Below are positions 5,538 to 42,347 of a stretch of 44,948 nucleotides of DNA, piece by piece. Under the pieces are notes generated by a model that made no database searches, was not told the origin of the DNA, and saw only the letters and a program-made list of their open reading frames with translations. The position numbers and the translations under genes were made by a program. The stretch's first letter is position 1. Every line of letters starts with the position of its first letter. The DNA is from a virus: positions 1 to 44,948 of IMG/VR virus record IMGVR_UViG_3300037261_000140. One strand, given 5' to 3'.

Positions 5538-5548
5538 CTAAAGATTAC
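5538..5548 (-). promoter_or_regulatory. AATCTT box before tail tube gene
   Basis: Minus strand reads GTAATCTTTAG, overlapping the sheath stop codon and ending 18 bases before the tube ATG at 5520; AAAGGAG follows as ribosome site. Same motif as before the fibre, DUF3494, portal-side and endolysin units. Confidence 0.5.
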
Positions 5549-8304
5549 GCGGCTGACTGAACCTGGGATACGTTAATACTGATCGGGATGAAATAGATGG
5601 CAGTAGCCAGCTTGATTTCAACCGCAACAGCCATTTCAGGCCCATTGATGGTGACCTTTTGGTTTTTATAACCAAGAGGAGCATCGGAACTGCCGGCGAT
5701 TAACTTCAACCGTTTGTAGCCGTCCATTTTTTGAGCCAAGAAGCTCAAAGCGGTAGCTGCATCGACATCGGCCAAACTCTTACCAACGAACGTGCTTTGG
5801 AAGCTCGCGGCCAGGTCGAGGGCCAAGATATCGGAACAGTAAACTGCTTGGATGCTGTTATAAACGAAGTTGGTATCAACTCCGTAGGTTGTTTGGTCAC
5901 TGACCCAACGATTGCCGGCTGTATCCTGTGTTAGGAACAGAAGACCTGCGCTGAGTGCATCTTCAACATCGCCGGGGCTGCCGGAATCAAATCCAGTAGG
6001 ATCGGTGAAGCTGATGACGTTTGCATATTTGTTGACGATGGCTTTATAGAATCCACCGGCTTGCATTCCAGCGGCCACACAAGCGGCGTACCAAGGCATG
6101 AAACTGGTAATAACCCCTTTGGAGTTAACCTGAGTCGGCCTTTGCATGGTAAGCGAGCAACGGTAGTTCGCGAGACTTTGAGCCTGCGCTTTAGCATTCG
6201 CATAACTTCCCCAGAAGGAAAGAATACAAATGCGATTCTTTTTGAGTTTTGGTGTGCTAAACTCGATACAATGCGATTTCGTCGCAGCATTGATCGCGGC
6301 GATTGTATAGGTCGAACTTGCATCGGTAAGCCCGGCGATGATATCAGCCGAAGCATCTTCTGAGAAAAGAGGAACGATGATGTTGACATCAATCGTAGCC
6401 AATAACTCGATAGCTTGGATGATTGTCGCAGCAGTAGTTCCACCTCTGGCGCCGCCAGCAAGAAACGCTGGGTTTACCATAGGATTGGGCAATCCGGCTG
6501 TAGCTATCATATTGAATTGCACTTTAGTCGCAACAGCAACATCTTGAGCGAATTCATAAGCTGCATCTTTGATTCTTCCAGGTTGACCAGCGGCCACAGT
6601 AGAAGCGATACCAACGGCGGCAACAGCGTCCAAAGCAGAAGGAGGTAACTGACTAGCTGAAGAATCAGCTGAAGCAGAATATCCCGTTTGAGAATTTAAG
6701 AATGCGGCTAAATCTCCGATTGTGGAATACTGAGCGAGATTAACGCTTAAGTTAGCGCCTGATCCGCCAGTAACGGCTGTGGTCAACAAGTTAGTTGTTT
6801 TGTTGATGGTAACCGTTCCAGAAGTACCTTGATAACCAAGATAAAGGGCAAAGGTTGTTGGAACGTCGATTGTTTGGCTGTAGCCAATATCGGTTCTGTT
6901 GATTTGAACTTCAACTTCGGCTTCTTGAGAAGCGACGTTGATACCGGGAGCTAAACCTAAAGCGGCCAGATCTCCGGGGGTAGAATCGATCAATTCAAAA
7001 CTTCTTCCCCAGCCACTTCTATAAGGAGCAGGGTTAGCGGCCATGGTCAATTGTACAGAGTTCGGAGCGGCACCGGCTGAAGCCACAAGGCCAGCAGGAA
7101 GTACGGCGTTAAGCTCGACAATTAATTCGGCGATATTCCCGTGGGCTGGCGTATTGATTATGCCAGGAGGGAAACCTGTGATAGTATTTGTCGGAGAAGA
7201 ACCTACGTCTCCGCTGATAACAGAGAAACCAGTGTTGGTTACAGCTGAAGCGCCCAAGAGAGCGAAATTTCCGGCTGATGCCAATAATGGAGCTTGTTGA
7301 GCATTCACGATAGTCGCAGCACTTAAGGAGATAGCTCCAGATAGAGCGATTAAGCTACCGTTGACAGTTCCACCAGAAGTATCCGTGATCGAGGTTTGAG
7401 CGATGACGTTACCATTGAAGGTACCGATAAATGCAGAGTTGAGGGTAGCAGAGCTACCAACGATGAAGTACACGTTTTTAGCAAGTGCTCCACCAGTTAA
7501 ATTGATGACTGGAATTCCAGTTGAACCAGTAACGAGGGTACTTGCAGTTTTGATAACGAATACATCGGTAGCCGTACCGTTAAAGGTAAGTGCTCCGCCG
7601 GCATCTAAAGTAGCCGCGCCAGTATTGTAATAACCGGCAGATAATGTTTGTCCATCGAGAACAGCAGGGATCGCGACATAACCGCCGTGACCAGCCAAAG
7701 ATGTATAGGCCGCCAAAGCATCAGCTTGAGCCGTTGCAGCAGAAAGACCGCCGCTGGATGAACTAAGGGTGACCACAGTAGCAGGTCCGCCATTCAATCG
7801 AACAGAAAAAGTATCTCCGTTTAAGGCAGCGCCGAAAGCGGTGATAGTATTACCAGCAAAAGAAGGAGGAGTTTCAGTTTCTAAAGAGGTGACTTGATAA
7901 CGGTAGAGATTTCCGTTTGTTCCGAAGTTGTTATCAAGAATTGTTGCATAGTCGGTGTCAACAAGGGCCGAAGCTTGAGAACTGGAGTTTGTTTTTACGA
8001 TGTAAATTTTGTTGGCCGAGCCGACGATATCTGCATCGCCTGACGGAGCAGAGAAAGCCGCGAAGGCATCAACAATGGGTCCTGAAACATATTGTTGCAT
8101 GACCTTATCGAGTTGATCGGGCGTAAAGGAGTTATTTTTCAACTGAAACGAGGGATCAGTGAAAACATCTCCGCCATCGGCTTCACCAAAGATAACTACG
8201 TTACCAGACGAACCAAGTCCAACTGGCTGGCTTTGAACCGTAATTTCCGGGTATGCGCCGGGAATATTAGTATTTAAAAAACTTGTTACTTCTCTTTGAG
8301 ACAT
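5545..8304 (-). CDS. tail sheath protein with inserted, permuted DUF3494-like domain
   Basis: 919 aa. The N terminus (NIPGAYPEITVQSQPVG, then GNVVIFGEADGGDVF) and the long C-terminal part (ATIIQAIELLATIDVNIIVPLF, ANYRCSLTMQRPT, VYCSDILALDLAASFQSTFVGK, KLATAIYFIPISINVS) match the contractile-tail sheath plan: an N-terminal exchange arm, variable domains and a conserved C-terminal core. Residues about 181-386 (7764-7147) are not sheath-like. They contain the DUF3494 ice-binding-protein signature in swapped order: DALAAYTSLA, LDGQTLSAGYY, INLTGGALAKNVYFIVG, FNGNVIAQTSI and SLIALSGAISL come first, followed by NFALLGASAV, VISGDVGSSP and NTITGF. The insertion splits another sheath domain (RLNGGPATVVTL before, NIAELIVELNAVLPAG after). 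At 919 aa it is larger than many sheaths. The domain should be displayed on the outer tail surface. The tube gene follows, and a 107-aa gene precedes it. Confidence 0.9.
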   Translation of the reverse strand: MSQREVTSFLNTNIPGAYPEITVQSQPVGLGSSGNVVIFGEADGGDVFTDPSFQLKNNSFTPDQLDKVMQQYVSGPIVDAFAAFSAPSGDADIVGSANKIYIVKTNSSSQASALVDTDYATILDNNFGTNGNLYRYQVTSLETETPPSFAGNTITAFGAALNGDTFSVRLNGGPATVVTLSSSSGGLSAATAQADALAAYTSLAGHGGYVAIPAVLDGQTLSAGYYNTGAATLDAGGALTFNGTATDVFVIKTASTLVTGSTGIPVINLTGGALAKNVYFIVGSSATLNSAFIGTFNGNVIAQTSITDTSGGTVNGSLIALSGAISLSAATIVNAQQAPLLASAGNFALLGASAVTNTGFSVISGDVGSSPTNTITGFPPGIINTPAHGNIAELIVELNAVLPAGLVASAGAAPNSVQLTMAANPAPYRSGWGRSFELIDSTPGDLAALGLAPGINVASQEAEVEVQINRTDIGYSQTIDVPTTFALYLGYQGTSGTVTINKTTNLLTTAVTGGSGANLSVNLAQYSTIGDLAAFLNSQTGYSASADSSASQLPPSALDAVAAVGIASTVAAGQPGRIKDAAYEFAQDVAVATKVQFNMIATAGLPNPMVNPAFLAGGARGGTTAATIIQAIELLATIDVNIIVPLFSEDASADIIAGLTDASSTYTIAAINAATKSHCIEFSTPKLKKNRICILSFWGSYANAKAQAQSLANYRCSLTMQRPTQVNSKGVITSFMPWYAACVAAGMQAGGFYKAIVNKYANVISFTDPTGFDSGSPGDVEDALSAGLLFLTQDTAGNRWVSDQTTYGVDTNFVYNSIQAVYCSDILALDLAASFQSTFVGKSLADVDAATALSFLAQKMDGYKRLKLIAGSSDAPLGYKNQKVTINGPEMAVAVEIKLATAIYFIPISINVSQVQSAA

Positions 8305-8644: not shown

Positions 8645-10150
8645 TTAACTCTTTTTCAATCGTTTATTGGCTTTGTCTTCCATAAACTTAGCAAGTTTGG
8701 CCGATCCAATACTTTTCCCAGCCGGCATTTCTGACTTGGTTACTGCCGAACTTGTTTTTGGCGCCTGAGCGTCCTTACCAGTATCAAGAGCTTTCTTTAA
8801 ATTAGCCGAATGATACTCAACTTTCCACATTCCAGATTCAGATTTTATTACCTGACCTTCCTCTGATTTTGCGGCAGGAGCAGGTGAGGGAGAAGGAGCA
8901 GGTGAGCTAACGCTTCTTGCACCTTGTTGTATTTTAGCGGGAGTGATCGAACCACTGGCCGCAGCATTCGCAAAATTTTGTCCAAAATCTTTCTTCAGCG
9001 ATTCAGACTTACCAAAAGCACCGCTAATCCCAGCTTGAACCCCTTGAGGAGTTGCTGTTTGGGTATGGGGTACTCCGCCTGCGGCACCTGCCGCTGCGAT
9101 CCCGGCTTGTATTCCGCCGTCTTTTTTAAGTTCTTCGCCTTCATGTTGATATGTGTCAGAACCATGAACGATTTCGTGACCGTTCAAATTCTTGATTCCG
9201 ATATTATGGGCATGTTCCTTAAATTGATTAGGAGATGCCTCATGTGTTTTGTATCCATGTTGTTTCATACTATGATGAACTTTGTCGATTAAATGTTGTC
9301 TAACCGACATTCCAAATTTATCGTTGCTGCTTTTTTTCTCTTCTGCTTTATCTACACCATCTTCACTTTTCGGAAGATTGGGTTTAGGCATATCTTTGAG
9401 TTCTGATAATTTATCGCTATGTAAAGACTTAGCATCTGACATCACAGAATCTTTACTTGATTTCATATCCGAGCCATATTTATTGGCATTTCTAACTCGA
9501 TTGCCCGCGCTAGATCCTTCTGTAGTTTCCATTCCGCTATGTTTGAATGGGCTTTTCTCATGGACACCCTTTTCATCTTTTTCTAAATTGGCTGAATGAT
9601 ACTCAACTTTGTGCATTCCAGCTTCAGTTTTTCTGACTTGGCCTTCCATACCGTATTTCTTGACGTTATAGGGCTGAGCGCCGGGAGCCGCATTGTTACC
9701 TTCAGCGTTCTCTTTCGGGTTCTTGTCGGGATCTTCTTGATGTCTAACTCGCCTTTTTCCCACGATGTCTTCTTTATCGACTTCTTCTTGGTGTCTGTGG
9801 GGAGCTTGCGTACCTAACTTCTTAGAGTTCTCAGATTCGTATTTATCCATGCCTTCTTCCGATTTGGGAAGGTTGGGCTTGGGCATTTCTCTTGAAGATG
9901 CCAACACGTCTCGGTGAAGATCTCTTGCTTTCGATTCATATGTTTCTTTTGCCTGGGGATGTTCACTAGGAGCATGATGAGCTTCTCGTGCCATTATTCC
10001 GGCACGCGACATACCTGGATGCCTATTAATTTCTTTATGAACGCCCTTTTCAGCCTTTTCTAAAACTTCAGACTTCCCAATCAATTCCTGTACTTTAGCA
10101 AGAATTGCTTCGGCTACCTGTCTTGGAGTTACTTGTTCATCGCGTGCCAT
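8645..10150 (-). CDS. repeat-rich hydrophilic late protein with KSE motifs
   Basis: 501 aa, very rich in Lys, Glu, Ser, His and Gly; most of it is probably disordered. It contains repeated modules: MPKPNLPKSE twice (coding positions 9857-9886 and 9362-9391), VEYHSANL twice, and several copies of a (K/E)GVH or SGM(H/W)K phrase. KSE occurs seven times. A central piece (residues about 285-345, HLIDKVHHSMKQHGYKTHEASPNQFKEHAHNIGIKN) may be a small folded domain. The same MPKPNLPKSE peptide occurs near the C terminus of the prohead protease at 28561-28590. No enzyme motif is seen. Its place among neck and tail genes suggests a virion or assembly protein, possibly processed by the phage protease (inference). 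The gene has an AATCTT-like box upstream. Confidence 0.6.
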   Translation of the reverse strand: MARDEQVTPRQVAEAILAKVQELIGKSEVLEKAEKGVHKEINRHPGMSRAGIMAREAHHAPSEHPQAKETYESKARDLHRDVLASSREMPKPNLPKSEEGMDKYESENSKKLGTQAPHRHQEEVDKEDIVGKRRVRHQEDPDKNPKENAEGNNAAPGAQPYNVKKYGMEGQVRKTEAGMHKVEYHSANLEKDEKGVHEKSPFKHSGMETTEGSSAGNRVRNANKYGSDMKSSKDSVMSDAKSLHSDKLSELKDMPKPNLPKSEDGVDKAEEKKSSNDKFGMSVRQHLIDKVHHSMKQHGYKTHEASPNQFKEHAHNIGIKNLNGHEIVHGSDTYQHEGEELKKDGGIQAGIAAAGAAGGVPHTQTATPQGVQAGISGAFGKSESLKKDFGQNFANAAASGSITPAKIQQGARSVSSPAPSPSPAPAAKSEEGQVIKSESGMWKVEYHSANLKKALDTGKDAQAPKTSSAVTKSEMPAGKSIGSAKLAKFMEDKANKRLKKS

Positions 10151-11563: not shown

Positions 11564-12355
11564 TTAGCCGCCGTACTTTGCTAAGATTTGTGGAAGGACA
11601 TTTGTTTCCCATTCATTCAAGGCCCATTGATATGCTGCTTCAAAGAAATTCTGAGCTTTATAGCCTGGATGAATAAATTTTCCTTCACTGGCACCGCTGT
11701 CGGTCACAGTGCGGAATGTCATAATTTCTCTTTTTACTGATGTTTTTCCAGTCGCCTTATCTTGTACTTCTCTTTGATAGACGCTGACTCGGGCTAATGC
11801 AGGAGTGTTGGCTTTTGATTTTAAAGAACGGCCAACAAAGCTACTTTTATCTGGAATGCTGAATTCATGAAGTTTTCCAAGCCGAGGATTGCCGCCCTTT
11901 TTCTGAATTGTACTCCAAGGAATTTTTCTTGCGGCCATCTCTGATCTAATTTGGCTGACCAAACTTTGAGCATAGGCATTATTTTTGCTAGGAGATTTTT
12001 CATGATGGAAAGGAACAGCAAGACTTTTATGGCCAGTACGAGGATTTACTGTGGCCTTACTACTTTTTAAAATATCATCTTTCATGTCTCTGGGGCCGGC
12101 GCCGTCTTCAATCCAAAGAGCACTTTCGTCAATTGTGAATAGGTGAACGTGTGGGGCAATTTCTGCAACGTGAAAAGCTTTTTCAAATATTTCTCGGCTA
12201 TGATCTAGTTTTTCTTCTGCCATTTCTGTGATTCGGGCATGGGTCATCGTAGCAAGAGCATCTACTCCATTTAGAATGTCTTGAGTGATCTCTTCTTTGG
12301 CTTCTCGAAAAGCATCGGCAATAGAATTTACGTCAATCTCTAGCTTAATACCCAT
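11564..12355 (-). CDS. HK97 gp10-like neck/tail-completion protein
   Basis: 263 aa. The N-terminal half is helical (NSIADAFREAKEEITQDILNGVDALATMTHARITEMAEEKLDHSREIF). The C terminus carries the characteristic phrase of HK97-gp10-like proteins: a serine/glycine strand (MTFRTVTDSGASEGKFIHPGYKAQNFFEAAYQWA) in which IHPG-x-K-A-x-x-FF precedes the last helix. Such proteins sit at the head-tail joint and help terminate or stopper the tail. The start ATG at 12355 overlaps the last base of the upstream mCpol-like gene, suggesting coupled translation, and the next structural gene begins one base after its stop codon. Confidence 0.7.
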   Translation of the reverse strand: MGIKLEIDVNSIADAFREAKEEITQDILNGVDALATMTHARITEMAEEKLDHSREIFEKAFHVAEIAPHVHLFTIDESALWIEDGAGPRDMKDDILKSSKATVNPRTGHKSLAVPFHHEKSPSKNNAYAQSLVSQIRSEMAARKIPWSTIQKKGGNPRLGKLHEFSIPDKSSFVGRSLKSKANTPALARVSVYQREVQDKATGKTSVKREIMTFRTVTDSGASEGKFIHPGYKAQNFFEAAYQWALNEWETNVLPQILAKYGG

Positions 12356-14532
12356 TATTTTTTATTCTCTTTAGAACCCTCTTTTACTGGAACTCCAGAT
12401 GGACCCATGACGACGCCTTTTTTGCGGTCGATCCAACGAGTCTTGCCGGTAACTTTGTCTGTAGTTTTTTGTTGACCTTTAAGGTTGATAGAACCTTCTT
12501 GCAAAGGAGTACGGGCCACATGTTTAGTGGTCGCACTGGTAGGCAATTTACCCGCGCCGCTACCGGCACCGGGTTTACTTCCTTTTGGGGGCTCGTTAGC
12601 TGCACCCTCCTTGGGGGCAGCCGATTTGTCGTCTTTTTTAGGGGGGAATCCACCTTTACCTTCGGTCTTCTCTTTACCTTCAGGTTTTTCCTTTTCGCCC
12701 GGTTTGGCGTCTTTCCCATCCTTTTTTGGCGGAAAGCCACCTTCTTTCCCATCCTTTTCTGGCGGGAAACCACCTTCACCAGCTTGTTGTTCTTGTCCAG
12801 GCTGTTCCTGACCGCCCTTACCACAAGTAGGACACGGTTGTTCTTGGCCTTGTTCTTGACCAGGAATTTCTTCAGAACCATCGCTGAGACCTAACATTTT
12901 AGCCATTTCAATCATGGCCAAAAGCATTGACACGCAGGAGGTGTAAAGTTCTGGAGCTTGAGCAGAAGCTTGTTCCAGAGCTTGTTTGTTATTTTTAAAA
13001 CCTTCAAGAGCTTGGCCAATCATTTGTTTGACCTTTTCTTCTTGCTCTTGATCTTGGCCGGCATCGAGGCCATCTTGCATGACGCCTTCAATTTCTTCTG
13101 CGCCTGGCTCACCAGCTTGCTGTTCTTGAGCTTGCTGTTGTTGCATGGCAGCGTCATTTTCTTGGTCGGCAGGGGATTGTCCGCCTAAACCATTATCCTG
13201 AGTGTCTTCGGGATTGCCATTTTCAACAGTAACTCCGCCTTCAGGTCCGCCATCCATTCCAACATCGCCTGGAACATTTTGTTCTTTGAAACCATCAGGA
13301 CGACTGACGTTTCCTTCCATCTCGGTACTTACAGGCATTTGAGTGTTGTCAACGGCATTCAACTGTTGTTGTTGAGTTGCCGCATCAGCAGGAGGATTAT
13401 CTACTGCCTCTTGAACGACTTCACTAGCCTGCGCTTTTGCTTGGCCGCATGACGGGCACACTTCGCTATGCTCTTCTTGGCCTTGCGGTGCAGCCTCTTT
13501 ACCTTGCGGTGGAGCTTCTTTAGGAGCTTCTTTACCTTTTTCATTTTTCACATCCTTTTCAGGTTTCTTTTCAGTTGCCATATCCACACTTTCTTGAGGC
13601 TCACCTTTTTTAACAGGAGCCTTAAATTCATCTTTCGAGGGATCATTACCAGTAGCTTCAGCCTTCTCCCGAGGAGTAGACATTTCTTTACCAATCACAT
13701 GTTTATTGGCTTGACCAATTTCTTCTTCTTGCTGTTTACTGACCGTTTTATCGGGCAGTTGTCTTTCTTCAGCCTTTGCATCTCCGGGCCGGGCATCAAC
13801 TTTACCTTCTACCGCTTTGCTGGCGGCTTCTTGGGTTGTTTTTGCCGATGCTTCTTGAGGAGATTCTGTAGTAACTGCGCCAGCTTGCGCATTTTCATCG
13901 GGGTTTTCTGCCGATGTTTTGGCCGATGTTGTGGCGGATTGTTCACTGGCTTCCCGTTCCTGTTTTTGTTCAGGGGACTCAGTAGCTAACTGAGCAGGAG
14001 GCTGGCCAGTTTTTTCCTTCTTAATTTGATCTGTCTGCCAAGAGTCTTGTTGAAACTGTTGGTCTTCTTTTCCTGGGCTTAAATATGCTTCTCCAAGCTT
14101 TTGTTCTTCTTCAGAACCCTGACCTTGTGCTACCCTATCTTGAGTGGCTTGGATATCGGATTCAACTGTTTGGTCATACATGACCACTTGATTTTTACCG
14201 CGAAACTTCGCGACCATGAGAGACTTGCCGGCCTGTGAAAGATTTTGGCCTACTCCAACCGACATTGTAAGGTTGGTAGAAAATTCATAGTCTCTGCGCA
14301 GTTCTTCAATATTTTCAACTGCTTCAGCGGGAAGAGAGAAACAGCCTTCGTCTCCGCCGCCACTTATAACTTGTCCATTATGTTCTTGGACCCATTTTTT
14401 AACAACTTCGTGTCCAAGATTTATTCTGGCAGATATTTCACTGAGCGCACCTGCGTCATCCGCAAGTATCGCACGGCCAACAAGCCGTCCGGCGTTGTCG
14501 CCGTCATATGCCAGAAAGATTTGGTTATTCAC
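12355..14532 (-). CDS. Cas10/mCpol-GGDEF-like nucleotidyl cyclase domain with long disordered tail
   Basis: 725 aa from a GTG start (14532), with AAGGA six bases upstream. Residues about 1-122 form a palm-type polymerase/cyclase domain: FLAYDGDNAG (D10, D12) resembles the first metal site of Cas10 and mCpol proteins; GGGDEG at 58-63 matches the GGD(D/E) turn; TMSVGVG and KFRGKNQVVMYD match the end of GGDEF-type folds. The expected reaction is NTP to a cyclic (oligo)nucleotide, not proven. Residues about 123-650 are low complexity (Gln, Glu, Pro, Lys, Gly), with two CPxCG knuckles (CPSCGQ near 365, CPTCGK near 590) and GGFPPKKDGK repeats. The basic C terminus (GKTRWIDRKKGVVMGPSGVPVK) may be a separate small module. 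It sits in the late operon between a zinc-ribbon gene (8-base overlap) and the gp10-like gene, so the enzyme may be virion-associated. A degenerate, non-catalytic palm is the alternative. Confidence 0.7.
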   Translation of the reverse strand: MNNQIFLAYDGDNAGRLVGRAILADDAGALSEISARINLGHEVVKKWVQEHNGQVISGGGDEGCFSLPAEAVENIEELRRDYEFSTNLTMSVGVGQNLSQAGKSLMVAKFRGKNQVVMYDQTVESDIQATQDRVAQGQGSEEEQKLGEAYLSPGKEDQQFQQDSWQTDQIKKEKTGQPPAQLATESPEQKQEREASEQSATTSAKTSAENPDENAQAGAVTTESPQEASAKTTQEAASKAVEGKVDARPGDAKAEERQLPDKTVSKQQEEEIGQANKHVIGKEMSTPREKAEATGNDPSKDEFKAPVKKGEPQESVDMATEKKPEKDVKNEKGKEAPKEAPPQGKEAAPQGQEEHSEVCPSCGQAKAQASEVVQEAVDNPPADAATQQQQLNAVDNTQMPVSTEMEGNVSRPDGFKEQNVPGDVGMDGGPEGGVTVENGNPEDTQDNGLGGQSPADQENDAAMQQQQAQEQQAGEPGAEEIEGVMQDGLDAGQDQEQEEKVKQMIGQALEGFKNNKQALEQASAQAPELYTSCVSMLLAMIEMAKMLGLSDGSEEIPGQEQGQEQPCPTCGKGGQEQPGQEQQAGEGGFPPEKDGKEGGFPPKKDGKDAKPGEKEKPEGKEKTEGKGGFPPKKDDKSAAPKEGAANEPPKGSKPGAGSGAGKLPTSATTKHVARTPLQEGSINLKGQQKTTDKVTGKTRWIDRKKGVVMGPSGVPVKEGSKENKK

Positions 14533-16674: not shown

Positions 16675-17196
16675 TTATTTCCCTTGAATCCGGATCTTCA
16701 CCGCACTGCAAGAAACGGCCTTTTCGGCAGTAGCACCGGCAAGTGCTCGGCTAAATTGGGACGGTGCGGCAAGAGTGTCAATTACAATGGAGTCCCTTTC
16801 TAAATGTCCAGTGACCGAGGCCACTTTACTGTCATTTTGCGTGATGTGGAATTCAATACGACTTCCATCCTGAATAGAATAGATGTCATGGCCTGATTTT
16901 CTAAGATCTTCGCTAAGCCAATGAGAATGTTGATCGACAACAGCAGTATCGGACATTCCTTCGCTTTTCATCAAAGCGGGTTGAAACTCAGGATACTGTT
17001 TCGCAAGGTTAAACTTGACGACAGCAGGATGACTCCCAGCGGCAAGAGCTTCTTCACGATATTTGCCCTTGGGTTTACCAATTGCGATCCAAAAGCCGCC
17101 ACGAGTGCGAATCATCTTAACAGGATGTTTGTCAAGCATACCCGCGTCTTCGATGTGTTCAATTTCTTTATCTGTCAAAATAGGCTTGTCGCTCAT
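16675..17196 (-). CDS. unrecognised late protein with KSE motif (173 aa)
   Basis: The N-terminal part has a compact motif (KMIRTRGGFWIAIGKPKGK followed by EEALAAGSHPAVVKFNLAKQYPEFQPALMKSEG) ending in MKSE. A second domain (RIEFHITQNDSKVASVTGHLERDSIVID) is beta-rich. The stop of the upstream 489-aa gene overlaps its ATG by one base, so the two are coupled. The KSE tripeptide between the two halves is placed as an inter-domain linker would be, and may be a cleavage site. Function unknown; no enzyme signature. Confidence 0.5.
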   Translation of the reverse strand: MSDKPILTDKEIEHIEDAGMLDKHPVKMIRTRGGFWIAIGKPKGKYREEALAAGSHPAVVKFNLAKQYPEFQPALMKSEGMSDTAVVDQHSHWLSEDLRKSGHDIYSIQDGSRIEFHITQNDSKVASVTGHLERDSIVIDTLAAPSQFSRALAGATAEKAVSCSAVKIRIQGK

Positions 17197-18665
17197 TAGT
17201 GGGCTCCTTGATAATTGGTAGTAATTTTCTGTACATATGGGTGTATTTTAATATCTTGTTTATTTTTCATGGCCTTATAGGTTCCACGGATTCCCTGATT
17301 CCAGGAGAAACCGATTTTCTGGGGATCTTGGCCAAAATGTTTTTCAAGTCTTTTTAAATGCGATTGTGCAATGGAATCTTCCAGGCCAGGATTGTCATTC
17401 ATATATTTATGAAGTTCGGGACCATGCAGCATTGTTGCTTTTTCGTATTTTGCTTTTAATTTGGGCTGAAGATGAATGGTCTCTCTAATGACATCGGGAG
17501 TCAAGCCATATTTACCATAAGCCGATTCGCCAGAAGCTAAAGGTGCATGGTTAGTATTTTTTCCACTGCTGCTTTCGACAGATGCAATGCTTCTAAGCAT
17601 GCGACCAGAGTCATAAGCAGAAGCCGCTACCGGGGCCTTCATTTCCATAGCTTTTGGAGCAGTAGGCTGACTAATCATAGAAGAGGCCGCAATCATAGCG
17701 CCGGCAGCTTTTGTCTTGAAGCTCTTGGCTAAATCAAGATCTTCAAATTCATAAATCGTATTTCCGGCGCCCTTTTCGACACTAAGGTTTTCAAAGTACA
17801 CATCTTCGGGAGCCAAACCTTCTTTATTGATTTGGTCATATAGGGGCTTATCGATGGTCACATGCATGAAATAAGTATCGTATTGAACACCATCCATTTC
17901 ATCATAGAATTTTTTGTAAGAAGGAGGACAACCATCAACCATGAGCATGAAGTATTCAGTATCGCTGGCCTTAGAATAGTGAATTTTTGTGTGAAATTTT
18001 AATTTCTTAGGATCGGGCCGACAAATTTCGAGTTCATGAACTTTCTTTTTGATTTCATCAAGATCCATCTTCTGCTTTGCGTCAAAAACCTTCAAGGACA
18101 TATGAAGTGGAATATCGGGCGTAAGCATGGCGCGTCCTTTAATGTTCACTTTAAAAAGAACATCTCCTCCTATCATCGCTTTTTTGCGATAATCATTGGC
18201 GACACCAGTGCCGATCTTTTCTTTCTTATCAAGCATGGAATTATTTATAGTCTCTTGAGGAGGAATCTGAACGCCAGTCTGTCCATAACCTTCAGCGCCA
18301 TAATTGGCACGAATATCATGATCGCCGATTTCAATAGCCAAAGCCTTGATGCCGTATCTGGACATTTCCATAGTCCATTTCTCGACTTCTTCTTTGGGGC
18401 ATGTAATATAAGCCGCATCGGTCGCACTGCGATTTTCTTCGAGTACAACGTGATCTGGATACTTCATGAACATAAGTTCAATGGCACCAGGAGGACTGGA
18501 AGCTTGATCGAAAATGATTTTTGAATCTGATGGAATGGCCAACATAGGCGAGTGAATGCCCTGTTCCGATTTACCAATAGGACGGTCCAGATCATTGACT
18601 TTTATAAGTGAGCCAAGTTCTTGGATAACATCTTCTAATGTTCGTCTCATGTGTTTATGCCGCAT
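17196..18665 (-). CDS. 2H phosphoesterase-like domain fused to lytic transglycosylase domain
   Basis: 489 aa. The middle region has two H-x-(S/T) motifs 80 residues apart, LHMSLKVF (H188, S190) and FMHVTID (H268, T270), each at a strand end, the hallmark of 2H phosphoesterases such as LigT and the anti-CBASS protein Acb1, which hydrolyse 2',5'- or cyclic phosphodiester bonds. The C-terminal region (about 350-475) looks like a soluble lytic transglycosylase: IASVESSSG (catalytic Glu about 364), SAYGKYGLTPDVI, and a late FSWNQGIRGTYKAM helix. This domain would cut peptidoglycan during entry or lysis. The N terminus (1-160) is less clear but has GKSEQG near residue 31. ATG 18665 was chosen because a weak GGAAGTGG site precedes it; an internal ATG at 18650 is possible. 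It overlaps the upstream gene by 11 bases. The fusion is unusual. Confidence 0.65.
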   Translation of the reverse strand: MRHKHMRRTLEDVIQELGSLIKVNDLDRPIGKSEQGIHSPMLAIPSDSKIIFDQASSPPGAIELMFMKYPDHVVLEENRSATDAAYITCPKEEVEKWTMEMSRYGIKALAIEIGDHDIRANYGAEGYGQTGVQIPPQETINNSMLDKKEKIGTGVANDYRKKAMIGGDVLFKVNIKGRAMLTPDIPLHMSLKVFDAKQKMDLDEIKKKVHELEICRPDPKKLKFHTKIHYSKASDTEYFMLMVDGCPPSYKKFYDEMDGVQYDTYFMHVTIDKPLYDQINKEGLAPEDVYFENLSVEKGAGNTIYEFEDLDLAKSFKTKAAGAMIAASSMISQPTAPKAMEMKAPVAASAYDSGRMLRSIASVESSSGKNTNHAPLASGESAYGKYGLTPDVIRETIHLQPKLKAKYEKATMLHGPELHKYMNDNPGLEDSIAQSHLKRLEKHFGQDPQKIGFSWNQGIRGTYKAMKNKQDIKIHPYVQKITTNYQGAH

Positions 18666-19836
18666 GGTGCCACTTCCCGTTGATTATTTCGTCGGGCAAT
18701 AACCCAGCTTTTTGTTCAGCGTAGACAGTCTTATGGGGATTTTTTCGATTACTCTCGCCATGTTTTCCAAAATTGACTGTATTATTTTGGCCCATGGTTT
18801 CACTGGCCAAAGCTTTTTGAGCTTCGGGAGAGTACATCGGTTTATGAGTTAAAAACGCAGAATGCTCACCTTTTGGTCCAAAGGAATGTCCTTCTTTTGC
18901 GTGACCAAAATAGTCATGGACGACTCGGAATACGTCATTTGCGAGCATAGGTTTACCATCATGGCTTTCGCCAGTAGTAACCAATAAAGGATGGTCTGTA
19001 GGAGCACTTCCTTCGGAGCCGTACCCTTCTTCTGTTGGGTAATACCATAAATGGTTATTTTTATGGATATCATTAATAACGTCTTTTGAATTTTTGTATG
19101 GATTTTCCTGGCCCGGTTTCATCTTGGAAATTTTAAGGCCGCTTTTTTTGATATGTTGAAATTGCTCAAGAGTTTCTTTGATTAAAGCACCGTAGGCAGC
19201 TTTAACTTTGGGATCATTTGGTTTGTGTTCCATTTGTTCATAGGCCGATGCAATCTGGGCTCCGTGGGCTGGATTAACAGTCACGGGATTTGAAGGAGCT
19301 AATTTTAAACCCTTGGATTGAGCATATCCCTCGGCGACCTGTTTCACCTTGTTATTTTCTGGAATTCCGCCTCCGGCGCTACCGGCTTGATTGAAATTGT
19401 GTGTAAAGTGATGAGATCCACCGGGCAACGTGGTAAAATTGTCTTTTGGGGCTTGATTGTGCCAAGTCGTGCCTTCTCCAAGAATTTTCTTGCCAGCTTC
19501 GGGTCCATGATGAATACGCATTTCATGTTTTTTCCCAGTAGAAAATATGGAGCTATCCTGGCCAAGTCTAGCGGCCAATCCATGAAGGTGTTCAGCGTGT
19601 TCTGGTTTTACTCCATAGACAGCAATGCTTTTTTCTTTTTTACCATCATAGCTACCTTGGGTTTCATGAGCATCGTATCCGGCGCCCTTAAGGTGAGCAA
19701 GAACCGTAGGATGATCCATTTTCAGTTCATTCTTCTCGGGATGTTTTGGATTTTCAGCGGACATAAGGAAATGCGGCTCAGAAATTTTCTGCTTATGATC
19801 TTTTAGCGCATTTGAGATGCCGGTTTGGATACCCAT
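18655..19836 (-). CDS. polyvalent-type protein: DUF3293-like plus metal-binding-looking domain
   Basis: 393 aa. Residues about 18-115 (HFLMSAENPKHPEKNE, HLKGAGYDAHETQGSYDGKKEKSIAVYG, LAARLGQDSSIF) resemble DUF3293, which has a NP...N...L...G pattern ending in FGQ-(A/S)-(V/I). Residues about 180-380 carry a second conserved-looking block: FRVVHDYFGHAKEG (H307, H312), GFGPKGEHSAF-like text, and ALASETMGQNNTVNFG (E346, Q350, N351). The clustered His and Glu suggest a metal site, but the reaction is unknown. Proteins of this build occur among polyvalent proteins of phages and plasmids, thought to be delivered into the host with DNA. The gene lies in the late operon, 9 bases after the neck gene. 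Function inferred only. Confidence 0.5.
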   Translation of the reverse strand: MGIQTGISNALKDHKQKISEPHFLMSAENPKHPEKNELKMDHPTVLAHLKGAGYDAHETQGSYDGKKEKSIAVYGVKPEHAEHLHGLAARLGQDSSIFSTGKKHEMRIHHGPEAGKKILGEGTTWHNQAPKDNFTTLPGGSHHFTHNFNQAGSAGGGIPENNKVKQVAEGYAQSKGLKLAPSNPVTVNPAHGAQIASAYEQMEHKPNDPKVKAAYGALIKETLEQFQHIKKSGLKISKMKPGQENPYKNSKDVINDIHKNNHLWYYPTEEGYGSEGSAPTDHPLLVTTGESHDGKPMLANDVFRVVHDYFGHAKEGHSFGPKGEHSAFLTHKPMYSPEAQKALASETMGQNNTVNFGKHGESNRKNPHKTVYAEQKAGLLPDEIINGKWHHAA

Positions 19837-22544: not shown

Positions 22545-23513
22545 TTATGCTTCGGTGATACCACTGATTAATGTAATTGCGGTCTGAGCATATAGAGCAC
22601 CATGAACCGTAGTAGTAGCTTGAGTTGCAATTGAAGTTGCAGCCAAGATAACGCCTCTAAATGTTGAAGCTGTTTTCAAAGTTACTGCGCCGGTAATGGC
22701 CCAGAAAACATTTTGCGGCAAAATTCCACCAGTTAAATTTACTGCGATTCCAGCTTCTAAATTAAGAGTTCCAGAAATCTGCATAACGATTGAATCTAAT
22801 GGTCCGCCATGAATTGTGATGGGGCCAGTGATATCAACAGGGGTAGACCATTTGTAAATTCCAGGAACAAGCGTTTGGCCGTTAAGAGTTCCGCCGCCTA
22901 ATCCAACGACTGGGGCCGGGACAACTAACCCTTGAGCAAAAGTGTATGCCGCTTGCATGTCAGTGATTGCCTGGGTCAAATTAGCGGGAGTCGGGGCTGC
23001 GTTGTCAGGAGAATCTACGTTTCCAGAAACTTCAGCAGCACTACCATGGGCTCCACCGAGGTTCGGAGTATAAGTAAATCCAGTGATTGCGGTATGTGAA
23101 ATTGGACTTACTGCGATATTTCCCGTAACTGTGGCACCAGAGGCATTACTGATTCCTGCTTCTGATAAAATTCGATAGTTTCCAGCAGTGAGTAAAGGAA
23201 CAATGCCAGGGCCGTGAGCAGAATTGATTGCGCAATAGGCTCCAATGTTGTTCACGATATCCATTGCATATGGTTTGCTTGCAAACCCATCGACCATTAC
23301 GGCGATGTCATGCGGAGTAAGAAGTTTTTGACAAAGGATAGCTGCCTGAATGTTTAAGGCAACTTGTTTATCGCCCATTGCATCGATCAGTCTCGCCATG
23401 GTATTTTTGGAAAGAACAGATCCGTTTTGAACTGCAAGTGCGAATTCTTTACCGGCAGGTTTGCTTGCCAGGGCGTCTATAATATCCAAAACTGTGTCAT
23501 TCATTAGGGTCAT
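22545..23513 (-). CDS. virion-type protein with C-terminal DUF3494 ice-binding-like domain
   Basis: 322 aa. Residues about 1-100 form a helical phage-specific N-terminal domain (DIIDALASKPAGKEFALAVQNG; note the repeated phrase ASKP at 16 and 78). Residues about 103-322 match DUF3494, the bacterial and fungal ice-binding beta-solenoid: LLTAGNYRILSEAGISN, VTGNIAVSP, AITGF, an alpha-helix phrase (LTQAITDMQAAYTFA), LGGGTLNGQTLVPGIYKWST, VNLTGGILPQNVFWAITGAVTL, ASTFRGVILAATSIA and ALYAQTAITLISG. The order is canonical and near full length. No signal peptide is present. It follows the capsid and zinc-ribbon genes and has its own AATCTT box, so it is probably a late virion protein, for example a head fibre. 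Ice binding is only one possible role; DUF3494 proteins also act as adhesins. Confidence 0.85.
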   Translation of the reverse strand: MTLMNDTVLDIIDALASKPAGKEFALAVQNGSVLSKNTMARLIDAMGDKQVALNIQAAILCQKLLTPHDIAVMVDGFASKPYAMDIVNNIGAYCAINSAHGPGIVPLLTAGNYRILSEAGISNASGATVTGNIAVSPISHTAITGFTYTPNLGGAHGSAAEVSGNVDSPDNAAPTPANLTQAITDMQAAYTFAQGLVVPAPVVGLGGGTLNGQTLVPGIYKWSTPVDITGPITIHGGPLDSIVMQISGTLNLEAGIAVNLTGGILPQNVFWAITGAVTLKTASTFRGVILAATSIATQATTTVHGALYAQTAITLISGITEA

Positions 23514-25421: not shown

Positions 25422-26294
25422 TTATTTAAGTAGGTGGCTAATAGTTTCAAATCCGGCTTTATTCAAATAAAATTCGTTGATCGCATCTCTGTCAGATTTA
25501 GCCAGAGTAGGATCGGATGCTTTTTTGTTCAAAACTTGAGTAATCTCGCTCTTCGTGAGTTCAACTGTTTCGCTGTGTCCGCCTTCACCTTTGGCCAACA
25601 CTTCGATTTGCGTAATGGCTTTCTGGGGAGGAGGAGTCGTTTTCTCGACAAATTTGGTCAAGAAAGCAGAGACCGCGTTGAGTTGATTTTTACTGTCTTC
25701 GTTTTCCTTTTTAAGGGCTTCGATTTCAGACTTCAAAAGATCGGCTTCACTCTTGTTCATTTTCTCTCCATTAGCAGCTGAATCAGCTGATTTTGCGCCC
25801 GGCGAATTGCTCGGAGGGCATTTCTCAATTTCTGCCTTATTAAGGACAGGTTGAGGGGTTTCAGACGCTTCTGATTTTTTCCCTTCACTATTATGAGGGG
25901 CACTCGCCTCGATTTTGCCAGTTTCGGTTTTATTCAAAACAGGTTGGGGAGTTTCAGACGCTTCAGATTTGGGACCAGGAGAACCCTTTGGAGGATTCGC
26001 ACTCATTTCCCCACCATTTCCATCGGCTTTCGCGAGATTGCCGTCTTCCATGGCTTTAGCGATTGAGGCTTGATGGAAAGCTAATTCACCCTTAGACATA
26101 GACTTGTACATCTTATGGGCAGCGGCTTTATCATCTTCGTCGTAATCGCAATCTTCTTTCTTTTCAATCACAGCAGTTGGCTCAGATTTATTGAAAGAAG
26201 CAACAGATTCAGCTTCAGCTTTTTTGAGTTCGGCTGAAAACTGTTTCTCGATTTGACTTACGAGACCTACTAATTGCTCTTTTGTGTATGCCAT
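25422..26294 (-). CDS. capsid scaffold-like protein with KSE repeats
   Basis: 290 aa just upstream of the capsid gene, the usual place for the scaffold. It is charged and largely helical or disordered: an N-terminal helix (YTKEQLVGLVSQIEKQFSAELKKAEAESVASF), an acidic Lys/Glu region, a coiled coil at about 180-215 (KMNKSEADLLKSEIEALKKENEDSKNQLNAVSAFLTKFVEK) and a C-terminal helical tail (INEFYLNKAGFETISHLLK) that could bind capsid protein. The segment KSEASETPQPVLNK occurs twice (coding 25837-25877 and 25930-25970). There are six KSE tripeptides. Scaffolds are usually cut out by the prohead protease, so these may be processing sites (inference). Confidence in the scaffold role rests on position and composition. 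Confidence 0.75.
   Translation of the reverse strand: MAYTKEQLVGLVSQIEKQFSAELKKAEAESVASFNKSEPTAVIEKKEDCDYDEDDKAAAHKMYKSMSKGELAFHQASIAKAMEDGNLAKADGNGGEMSANPPKGSPGPKSEASETPQPVLNKTETGKIEASAPHNSEGKKSEASETPQPVLNKAEIEKCPPSNSPGAKSADSAANGEKMNKSEADLLKSEIEALKKENEDSKNQLNAVSAFLTKFVEKTTPPPQKAITQIEVLAKGEGGHSETVELTKSEITQVLNKKASDPTLAKSDRDAINEFYLNKAGFETISHLLK
25837..25971 (-). repeat. direct repeat inside the scaffold gene
   Basis: Two copies of a roughly 42-base coding unit, at about 25837-25877 and 25930-25970, encode the same 14 residues (KSEASETPQPVLNK). They differ at several synonymous positions, so the duplication is not recent or the protein sequence is under selection. Confidence 0.7.
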
Positions 26295-40574: not shown

Positions 40575-42347
40575 TTATGGTCTTTCGTTTGCTTCGTTAA
40601 CGTATTGATCGGCCTGTGAAGTCGCCCGGCCAAATTCAGCGTCGGCCTTAGCTTCAGACCGTTCAAACATATCATCTCGGGGGTGACAGACGATTCCGCC
40701 GCACGTTCCCAGTATGGTCGCAATGCTTACTGCGTTACTTAAAGATTCCTCCACAGCCTTCGTCGCGTCAAATAGGCCTAATGACTCAGCTTTTCCGTAC
40801 TGCTGATTTTCGATGTCATAAACCAGATGGGGGTTATCTATCAGTTTTCTAAGGACTTCTTGGGCCTGTTCGGGGTTGTAACCGGCGTTATCCAGAAGCT
40901 TATTCGGCAACGCAAGGAGGGACGGCATGAGGACTTCCCTGGCCGGATCTCCGGCCTGAAGCTCAGTCGCCAGCTTAAGGAACATGTCGAGGGCGATACG
41001 GCATCCGCCGGGCAATGCACCGTGTTTGATTGCACTCCGAACGGCGCATACAGCGTCTTCGCATCTATCGTGAGCTTCTTTGAGTTCGCCATTTGATCCC
41101 CCAAAAATGGTCAGTTTTGCAATACCATTGGTTATTTTGCCAAGACGTTCTTCTAACCACATCTTATCGGCATCACTTTCTGCGCCGGCTATCATGGTTT
41201 TTAGTTCATCGGCCCTGATTTCAACAAGTGTCGGATCAGGATTACCAATGACCGTGGAACGAAATCGGTAACATTCAAAAGATTCTGGGCCAACTCCAAG
41301 ATCGCCCATTGTTGCATTTTGGACTGGATCTTTCATGCTGAATACTTTGGCCCCAGTGAAGGCAGCCAAGTCGTGCAAGAAATGGAGTTGACTATTGGTG
41401 AACTGATGCATTGGCGTAACCAGAGGAACAATGTTCATAGTTGTTGGATTATTCATGTTAAACGCCAACTGCGTCAGGACCGACTCACTAAAACCGTGAG
41501 CCACGACAACAATGTTTTTGAAGTCACTGTTGCCTTCTTCTACATACTTTCTACCGATGCCATCGAATAGACCTTGAAAACTTATGAGGTCATTAACCAT
41601 GCCATCATAAAGGATGTACAAAGGTTTTTCTAAATAACAGCGTTGATTACCTTGGTCATTAATGAAGGCCGTATGGAATTTTCCGATACTCTCTTCGTAG
41701 CCCATGGGAATAGGGAATCCATCGATCCGTTCGACCTTGTATCCGGACTTTCCGGATAGTTCGCGAATGGTAACGTGAGAAGAGTCACCGTATCCGACTT
41801 CTTCAAAGGCTTTGATAACGGCATCGGCCATATCGGTGTCACCATTGGCACTGATAGTAGCTACCATCTTGAGCATGCCTTGATTCTCAATTCCAACTGC
41901 GATACTGCGAGATTGGATGTAGGGAATCAAGATCTCTCTGGTGACCTTGTTAATTCTTCGTGCGGCCTTCTGTGGGCTATATTGTGGATTTTCTTTGCAA
42001 AAATCAAATAGGTTGGAAATAATGTTGTAGGATAAAATAGTTGCGGTGGTCGTACCGTCGCCGGCCTCTGAAGCAGTTCTTTTGGCCGCATCACGGGCTT
42101 GCTCGGTAATCAAGTGTTCATATGGATCGATTGCGCCAAGACTATCGAAAACGGTAACACCGTCTTTGGTATTTTTGTTTCCGATACCATTGAAATCACT
42201 CTCGATTAGAATGTTAAAACCGCCGGGGCCAAGTGTTCGACCGACCGCTTCAGAAACTCGATGCATTGTATCGAGAATTTTCTTCTGCAATTGTTTTTTA
42301 TCGATCATGTAAATCTTGGGGGAAGTTTTCGCTTTTCTATAAGACAT
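40575..42347 (-). CDS. groEL-like: GroEL-like chaperonin
   Basis: 590 aa, group I/phage chaperonin. Motifs: SEAVGRTLGPGGFNILIE (nucleotide-binding loop, residues 33-50), KDGVTVFDSLGAIDPYEHLITEQARDAAKRT, GDGTTTATIL (96-105; catalytic Asp region), and a C-terminal equatorial part with GALPGGCRIALDMFLKLA and IVCHPRDDM. The apical part (residues about 190-370) is divergent from host GroEL. No GroES gene is visible here and the C terminus lacks the GGM tail. Giant phages such as EL and OBP encode similar single-ring or double-ring chaperonins that fold phage proteins without GroES. AGGAGG and a TGATATAAG -10 signal lie upstream, divergent to the helicase. The symbol is descriptive only. Confidence 0.85.
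   Translation of the reverse strand: MSYRKAKTSPKIYMIDKKQLQKKILDTMHRVSEAVGRTLGPGGFNILIESDFNGIGNKNTKDGVTVFDSLGAIDPYEHLITEQARDAAKRTASEAGDGTTTATILSYNIISNLFDFCKENPQYSPQKAARRINKVTREILIPYIQSRSIAVGIENQGMLKMVATISANGDTDMADAVIKAFEEVGYGDSSHVTIRELSGKSGYKVERIDGFPIPMGYEESIGKFHTAFINDQGNQRCYLEKPLYILYDGMVNDLISFQGLFDGIGRKYVEEGNSDFKNIVVVAHGFSESVLTQLAFNMNNPTTMNIVPLVTPMHQFTNSQLHFLHDLAAFTGAKVFSMKDPVQNATMGDLGVGPESFECYRFRSTVIGNPDPTLVEIRADELKTMIAGAESDADKMWLEERLGKITNGIAKLTIFGGSNGELKEAHDRCEDAVCAVRSAIKHGALPGGCRIALDMFLKLATELQAGDPAREVLMPSLLALPNKLLDNAGYNPEQAQEVLRKLIDNPHLVYDIENQQYGKAESLGLFDATKAVEESLSNAVSIATILGTCGGIVCHPRDDMFERSEAKADAEFGRATSQADQYVNEANERP

What the first reader, a model, noticed from the sequence alone, without database searches (positions are those of the whole stretch)
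17851..18105. 2H phosphoesterase domain joined to a lytic transglycosylase
Seen: HMS (188-190) and HVT (268-270) separated by 80 residues, and a C-terminal Glu-type transglycosylase domain. Known: 2H enzymes include the Acb1 anti-CBASS proteins that cut cyclic oligonucleotides, and LigT. Inferred: the protein may enter with the tail, open the cell wall with one end and neutralise a host nucleotide signal with the other.
Basis: partly seen in the sequence, partly recalled or inferred. Interest (0 to 1): 0.75.

Follow-up and report, generated by a model that had tools for sequence, protein, structure and literature searches.

The report
Phage nucleotide-cutter fused to wall-cutter
A bacterial virus encodes one protein that joins a cell-wall-cutting enzyme to a 2H phosphodiesterase, an enzyme type that other viruses use to destroy immune alarm nucleotides; both domains are real and conserved across a virus lineage, but what the 2H part cuts, and whether it is injected, is still untested.

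Summary
Confirmed. The 489-aa ORF (17196-18665, minus strand) holds a 2H phosphoesterase domain (~157-308; H188/S190, H268/T270) and a C-terminal Slt-type lytic transglycosylase (LT, ~351-487; Glu364). AlphaFold2 of the 2H region (pLDDT 89) matches 2H proteins: rotavirus VP3 2',5'-PDE (Z 9.6), then cyclic phosphodiesterases, Usb1, LigT, Acb1; unrelated folds score Z<=3.9. LT matches Slt (Z 12.4). In 28 related 2H domains from one contractile-phage lineage (distant cultured relative: Myxococcus phage Mx1) the HxS/T-HxS/T tetrad is intact in 25. The LT lost its catalytic half at least three times while 2H stayed intact; elsewhere 2H stands alone or joins a GNAT; Mx1 has GNAT+ART+NUDIX+LT. This is the 'polyvalent', predicted-injected architecture of Iyer et al. 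2017, who already proposed 2H as a counter to nucleotide immunity. I found no description of the 2H-LT fusion itself. More surprising nearby: an mCpol (Panoptes OptS-like cyclase) domain with intact catalytic residues in the same virion gene block, found in 43 viral loci.

The parts
17196..18665 (-). Complete 2H-LT gene, 489 aa; overlaps the upstream gene (18655-19836) by 11 nt and the downstream gene (16675-17196) by 1 nt
17742..18197 (-). 2H phosphoesterase domain, residues ~157-308
   Evidence: AF2 models; fold matches; PDB profile hit
18096..18104 (-). 2H motif 1, HMS (H188, S190)
   Evidence: H in 25/28 and S/T in 25/28 homologues
17856..17864 (-). 2H motif 2, HVT (H268, T270)
   Evidence: H in 26/28 and S/T in 25/28 homologues
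17205..17615 (-). Slt-type lytic transglycosylase domain, residues ~351-487
   Evidence: VIA-align Z 12.4 to Cj0843, 11.9 to Slt70; LT profile found in 18/18 related records
17574..17576 (-). Predicted catalytic Glu364 of the LT (VES..GK motif)
   Evidence: invariant in the 12-row LT alignment A3; catalytic role inferred from the Slt family
17670..17714 (-). Weakly hydrophobic, signal-like segment (residues ~318-332) just before the LT, preceded by K-[SG]; possible processing or export element (inference)
   Evidence: such a segment precedes the LT in 15 of 15 homologues checked and is the most hydrophobic stretch in 14
18321..18533 (-). N-terminal alpha/beta domain (residues ~45-115), seen in the window and closest relative G001
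   Evidence: alignment A1, AF2 secondary structure
18564..18572 (-). KSE element (residues 32-34, context KSEQGI); the same short motif recurs in other virion-block proteins
   Evidence: KSE 18 seen vs 4.6 expected in window proteins; K[STAD]E.G[MIV] 7 vs 0.2
18655..19836 (-). Upstream neighbour (phrog_3170-like); a homologue of its N-terminal domain is fused to 2H-LT in relative G033, linking the two genes
12355..14532 (-). Neighbouring virion-block gene with N-terminal mCpol (OptS-like) domain, D10/D12 and GGD(61)E intact; possible functional partner
   Evidence: PF18182 1.4e-14; KpOptS 9mnr E 4e-8; synteny

Best explanation
The gene encodes a two-enzyme 'polyvalent' phage protein, made late and most likely carried in the virion. 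At infection the C-terminal Slt-type lytic transglycosylase helps open the peptidoglycan for genome passage, and the 2H domain reaches the cytoplasm (fused, or after processing at the linker) and, by metal-independent HxT/HxT acid-base chemistry, cuts a small nucleotide substrate, most likely a cyclic or 2'-5'-linked oligonucleotide immune signal, before the phage has expressed any gene. Shown here: the two domains and their folds, the intact catalytic residues, conservation across the lineage, late-gene context, and modular exchange with other effector domains. Inferred: virion packaging and injection, catalytic activity, substrate class. Step probabilities: 2H fold 0.97; LT fold 0.95; 2H active 0.85; virion-carried 0.7; immune nucleotide as main substrate 0.5.
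For: 2H alone models at pLDDT 89, pTM 0.83; VIA-align's top rows are 2H proteins, best the rotavirus 2',5'-oligoadenylate PDE (Z 9.6, 3.5 A, 130 aligned), with BCSR5 phage PDE 7.4, Acb1 7.1, penguinpox cGAMP PDE 6.7; scores drop from 6.2 at rank 42 to 3.9 at rank 43. Both HxT motifs align to a LigT-family protein. Tetrad intact in 25/28; K192, F194 and G259 in 28/28. LT: Z 12.4, Pfam SLT 1.8e-5 in a relative. The gene sits in a block with sheath, tail and virion genes and overlaps both neighbours. The LT catalytic half was lost at least three times independently with 2H kept, so 2H has its own selected role. The slot is modular: GNAT-2H in G016, 2H alone in G017, GNAT+ART+NUDIX+LT in Mx1, the repertoire of polyvalent proteins (PMC5512222). 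G016, G017 and G019 (155-157 kb) keep an intact 2H without either RNA-ligase family searched.
Against: No direct evidence of packaging, injection or activity. Cyclic phosphodiesterases, Usb1 and LigT are within 1.2 Z of the best match, so structure does not choose the substrate. Not Acb1 by curated cut-off. RNA ligases occur in all five large genomes of the window's branch that were searched. Three relatives have lost the 2H tetrad, and G049 (172 kb) and Mx1 lack a detectable 2H, so it is dispensable for some.
Confidence: 0.5

Rival explanations
1. The 2H domain is an RNA-end enzyme (LigT/CPDase/Usb1-like) that removes 2',3'-cyclic phosphates from tRNA or mRNA cut by defence ribonucleases, or trims RNA; the LT only provides delivery.
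For: CPDases, Usb1 and LigT are close fold matches (Z 8-9); the only relevant sequence-profile hits in the PDB are LigT-type proteins; RNA ligases are present in G001, G002, G003, G010, G012 and G023.
Against: The RNA ligase genes lie far from the 2H gene (about 20 kb or more) and are not found in G016, G017 and G019, which keep an intact 2H; pairing with a wall hydrolase in a late gene is unusual for RNA repair; Iyer et al. saw no RNA-ligase association for polyvalent 2H domains (PMC5512222).
Confidence: 0.25
2. The 2H domain acts on NAD-derived nucleotides (ADP-ribose 1'',2''-cyclic phosphate or cyclic ADP-ribose signals), alongside the ART/NUDIX/GNAT class of effectors.
For: The same lineage carries ART and NUDIX with the LT in Mx1, and by eye NUDIX+GNAT+decayed 2H in G022; fold match to the plant ADP-ribose cyclic phosphodiesterase (Z 8.6); jumbo-phage 2H enzymes are discussed with NAD systems in PMC7824862.
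Against: Architecture alone does not fix a substrate; no macro or NADAR domain was seen next to the gene in the scans made.
Confidence: 0.12
3. The LT is a lysis enzyme acting at the end of infection, and the 2H part is a structural or regulatory domain without catalysis.
For: A signal-like hydrophobic segment precedes the LT; three relatives have a 2H-like domain without the tetrad.
Against: Tetrad kept in 25/28; lower dN in 2H than in the linker in all pairs compared; the gene lies in the tail/virion block; the LT catalytic half is missing in four relatives, unlikely for the sole lysis enzyme.
Confidence: 0.1

Closest known systems
Phage polyvalent proteins with 2H or lysozyme domains (Iyer et al. 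2017, PMC5512222)
   Same: Several effector domains in one late-gene polypeptide; 2H and lysozyme are both listed as phage-only polyvalent domains; same proposed role against nucleotide signals
   Different: 2H there is described fused to MuF or portal; a direct 2H-LT fusion is not mentioned in the passages read; this is a small example (about 360-490 aa)
Acb1 anti-CBASS phosphodiesterase (PMC9117128)
   Same: 2H fold with HxT/HxT tetrad, phage-encoded (Z 7.1; one relative E 0.012 to PF23474)
   Different: Below the Pfam cut-off; T4 Acb1 is not known to me to be fused to an LT; ligand-stacking residues of Acb1 could not be mapped here
Rotavirus VP3 C-terminal 2',5'-phosphodiesterase (RNase L antagonist)
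   Same: Closest fold (Z 9.6), and also a domain of a larger viral protein
   Different: 13% identity; eukaryotic RNA virus; 2'-5' oligoadenylate not tested here
LigT and 2',3'-cyclic phosphodiesterases
   Same: Fold (Z 8-9) and HxTxKF-type motif 1 as in P. horikoshii PH0099
   Different: Free enzymes; no LT partner
Slt70 / Cj0843 soluble lytic transglycosylases
   Same: Catalytic-domain fold (Z 12) and Glu-Ser catalytic motif
   Different: Phage LT is only the catalytic domain and is joined to 2H

Membership tests
2H phosphoesterase superfamily | Two-lobed 2H fold | tested here: met
2H phosphoesterase superfamily | Two H-x-[ST] motifs, one per lobe | tested here: met
   H188/S190 and H268/T270, 25/28 relatives; in register with PH0099
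2H phosphoesterase superfamily | Phosphodiester cleavage | not testable with these tools
   needs an enzyme assay
Acb1 (PF23474) | Pfam curated score reached | tested here: not met
   window protein no hit; best relative 15.7 vs 27 bits; none of 13 genomes over cut-off
Acb1 (PF23474) | Cleaves 3'3'-cGAMP and related immune signals | not testable with these tools
   needs an enzyme assay
LigT / 2'-5' RNA ligase family | Curated Pfam or NCBIfam score reached | tested here: not met
   best relative (G017): PF02834 13.9 vs 23.3 bits, TIGR02258 14.6 vs 65.7; none for the window protein
SLT lytic transglycosylase (PF01464) | SLT catalytic fold and Glu motif | tested here: met
   Z 12.4 to Cj0843; Glu364 invariant in A3; a homologue passes the Pfam cut-off, 24.7 vs 21.3 bits
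SLT lytic transglycosylase (PF01464) | Cleaves peptidoglycan | not testable with these tools
   needs a zymogram or muropeptide assay
Phage polyvalent protein | Two or more effector or enzyme domains in one polypeptide near late genes | tested here: met
   2H+LT in one ORF, flanked by tail and virion genes
Phage polyvalent protein | Packaged in the virion and injected | not testable with these tools
   needs virion proteomics

The most novel reading that the evidence does not exclude
The virion block carries both sides of a nucleotide-signal gambit: an injected 2H enzyme that erases CBASS- or type III-like alarm nucleotides and, a few kb away, an OptS-like mCpol cyclase that supplies a decoy cyclic dinucleotide so that a host Panoptes system, which kills the cell when its own c-di-AMP is depleted, stays silent. 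This would be a phage-carried anti-Panoptes nucleotide synthase paired with an anti-CBASS phosphodiesterase. For: the mCpol catalytic Asp pair is intact and aligns with OptS, and the 2H-LT gene lies about 2.5-5 kb away wherever both are detected. Against: G049 has mCpol without detectable 2H, G019 has 2H with a degenerate mCpol, and the product and timing of the phage mCpol are unknown.
Probability: 0.12. Interest if true: 0.9.

Novelty: new variant of a known kind. Interest (0 to 1): 0.55.

Why it matters
If right, a phage disarms nucleotide-based immunity at the moment of entry, before transcription, with an enzyme physically coupled to its wall-opening tool. The lineage offers a natural series of active, decayed and swapped 2H modules with which the 2017 polyvalent-protein prediction, and the substrate of such 2H domains, can be tested directly.

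Tried and rejected
Pfam, NCBIfam and PHROGs gave no usable hit for the window protein. A single-protein pattern search in viral contigs found nothing; the terminase gave the relatives instead. The 13-row 2H alignment was too divergent for a pattern search. A genome-collection scan with the 2H-LT alignment found no cellular relative (pattern-limited). Acb1 family search over 13 genomes: no member over cut-off. LT profile against PDB sequences: no significant hit, although the fold match is clear. dS is saturated between most available pairs, so dN/dS is not interpretable; only dN was compared. A strict coupling of 2H to intact mCpol was considered and rejected as a rule: G049 and G051 show mCpol without detectable 2H (G051 is a 67-kb fragment), and G019 has intact 2H with degenerate mCpol. 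The BCSR5 phage PDE (PDB 9q2y/9q2g) could not be traced to a paper in the library, and no paper on Mx1 was found.

Full report
What the window is. The 44,948-base window is a virus record holding the structural block of a contractile-tailed phage: terminase, portal, MuF-like protein, capsid-like protein, tail sheath, tail fibre (some names by eye). The terminase retrieves 34 related viral contigs of up to 177 kb. Among annotated phages the only match over most of its length is Myxococcus phage Mx1, 36.6% identical over 89%.

The observation. ORF 17196-18665(-) encodes 489 aa with HMS at 188-190 and HVT at 268-270. It overlaps both neighbours (11 nt and 1 nt), so it is in a compact operon with virion genes.

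2H domain. AlphaFold2 with 16 lineage sequences gives pLDDT 89 and pTM 0.83 for residues 147-310. VIA-align against Foldseek's candidates gives rotavirus VP3 2',5'-PDE Z 9.6, Deinococcus CPDase 9.0, Arabidopsis CPDase 8.6, Usb1 8.5, LigT 8.4, BCSR5 phage PDE 7.4, Acb1 7.1, penguinpox cGAMP PDE 6.7; the first 42 rows are 2H proteins or plausible relatives (a few mitoribosomal chains and ATU0111 were not checked), then scores drop from 6.2 to 3.9. Scores under 8 can be a common arrangement, but the sharp drop and the shared motifs argue for a true match. A profile of 13 relatives hits PH0099, a LigT-type protein, at E 0.0038 with both HxT motifs in register. In the viral structure library similar domains sit in Gordonia phage structural proteins and in Acb1 proteins. 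Among 28 2H domains the catalytic tetrad is intact in 25; G021, G028 and G022 have lost it; K192, F194 and G259 are invariant.

LT domain. Residues 350-489 match Cj0843 (Z 12.4) and Slt70 (11.9). A relative passes the Pfam SLT cut-off. Glu364 (motif VESSSGK) is invariant in 12 LT rows. The LT profile is found in 18 of 18 long relatives including Mx1. In G003, G005, G006 and G037 only the C-terminal part (model position 43 on) remains, without the Glu; the tree needs at least three separate events. Their 2H domains are intact, so the 2H function does not depend on an active fused LT.

Architectures. 17 of 28 carry 2H plus full LT in one ORF, four carry 2H plus an LT remnant, and seven have no LT called in the ORF (G044, 796 aa, was cut in that test and has a weak LT match). 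G017 has a stand-alone 188-aa 2H and G016 a GNAT-2H protein (Pfam); G019 shows the same GNAT-2H layout by eye, G021/G028 GNAT plus decayed 2H and G022 NUDIX-GNAT plus decayed 2H, also by eye. These phages encode the LT in a separate gene. Mx1 has GNAT+ART-PolyVal+NUDIX+LT in one 1,479-aa protein and no detectable 2H. In G033 the counterpart of the upstream neighbour's N-terminal domain is fused to 2H-LT.

How it most likely works. Iyer et al. 2017 defined phage polyvalent proteins as multi-domain late proteins thought to be injected; they list 2H and lysozyme as phage-only domains, suggest that lysozyme domains breach the wall during invasion, and that 2H domains act as RNases or degrade immune nucleotides (PMC5512222). 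The present protein fits: the LT would act in the periplasm, the 2H in the cytoplasm. A weakly hydrophobic, signal-like segment lies just before the LT in all 15 homologues checked, and a KSE motif is enriched in window proteins (18 vs 4.6 expected) and recurs at the 2H/LT junction of several relatives. I read this as a possible maturation site that could separate the two enzymes; this is inference only.

Substrate. Structure cannot choose among 2H substrates. For immune nucleotides: the injection-type partners, the best fold match to a 2',5'-oligoadenylate PDE, and intact 2H in G016, G017 and G019, where the two RNA-ligase families searched are not found. For RNA repair: the LigT-like sequence signal, and RNA ligases in the five largest genomes of the window's branch that were searched. 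I put about 0.5 on immune nucleotides, 0.25 on RNA ends, 0.12 on ADP-ribose-type substrates, and the rest on other or none.

A second nucleotide enzyme nearby. ORF 12355-14532(-) begins with an mCpol domain (PF18182, 1.4e-14) matching Panoptes OptS (9mnr, E 4e-8); D10 and D61 of the phage protein fall on the positions of the catalytic Asp pair reported for KpOptS, Asp6 and Asp57. The domain is found in 43 viral loci, nearly all with DGD/DAD and GGD motifs, and the 2H-LT gene lies about 2.5-5 kb upstream wherever it is detected. Orthologues in Mx1, G019, G021 and G022 have lost these residues. Because Panoptes kills when c-di-AMP is depleted by Acb proteins (PMC12657230), a phage cyclase could serve as an anti-Panoptes decoy source; this is untested and I give it low probability.

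Verdict. Observation confirmed; interpretation partly supported and largely anticipated in kind. The 2H-LT fusion and its decay series are a new variant of a known kind.

Noticed in passing
window 12355-14532 (-): mCpol (minimal CRISPR polymerase, OptS-like) domain with intact catalytic motifs at the N-terminus of a 725-aa virion-block protein; found in 43 viral loci, with degenerate orthologues in Mx1, G019, G021 and G022.
   Followed up: partly
window 5545-8304 (-): Tail sheath protein (phrog_279) also carries an ice-binding-like domain (PF11999, 6.9e-31); 22545-23513 looks similar by eye.
   Followed up: no
window 40575-42347 (-): Phage-encoded Cpn60/GroEL-type chaperonin (PF00118, 2.5e-34) near the terminase.
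   Followed up: no
window 8645-10150 and 25422-26294 (-): Short KSE-type motif strongly enriched in the proteins of the window (18 vs 4.6 expected), most of it in these two; possibly a maturation-protease site of this lineage.
   Followed up: partly
L002 7599-8330 (Mx1 WNM70324): Mx1, whose mCpol orthologue is degenerate, encodes a separate GGDEF protein (PF00990, 1.3e-9).
   Followed up: no
L002 14830-19269 (Mx1 WNM70333): A protein annotated 'NUDIX hydrolase' is in fact GNAT + ART-PolyVal + NUDIX + LT.
   Followed up: partly
L092 1048-1677; L094 7272-7973: ORF that reads like a GIY-YIG homing endonuclease directly after the 2H-LT gene, absent from the window (by eye).
   Followed up: no
L129 1695-2750: A relative with mCpol but no 2H detected has a different gene (DUF6321, 1.2e-15) before the conserved 16675-17196 orthologue, suggesting a variable effector slot.
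   Followed up: no
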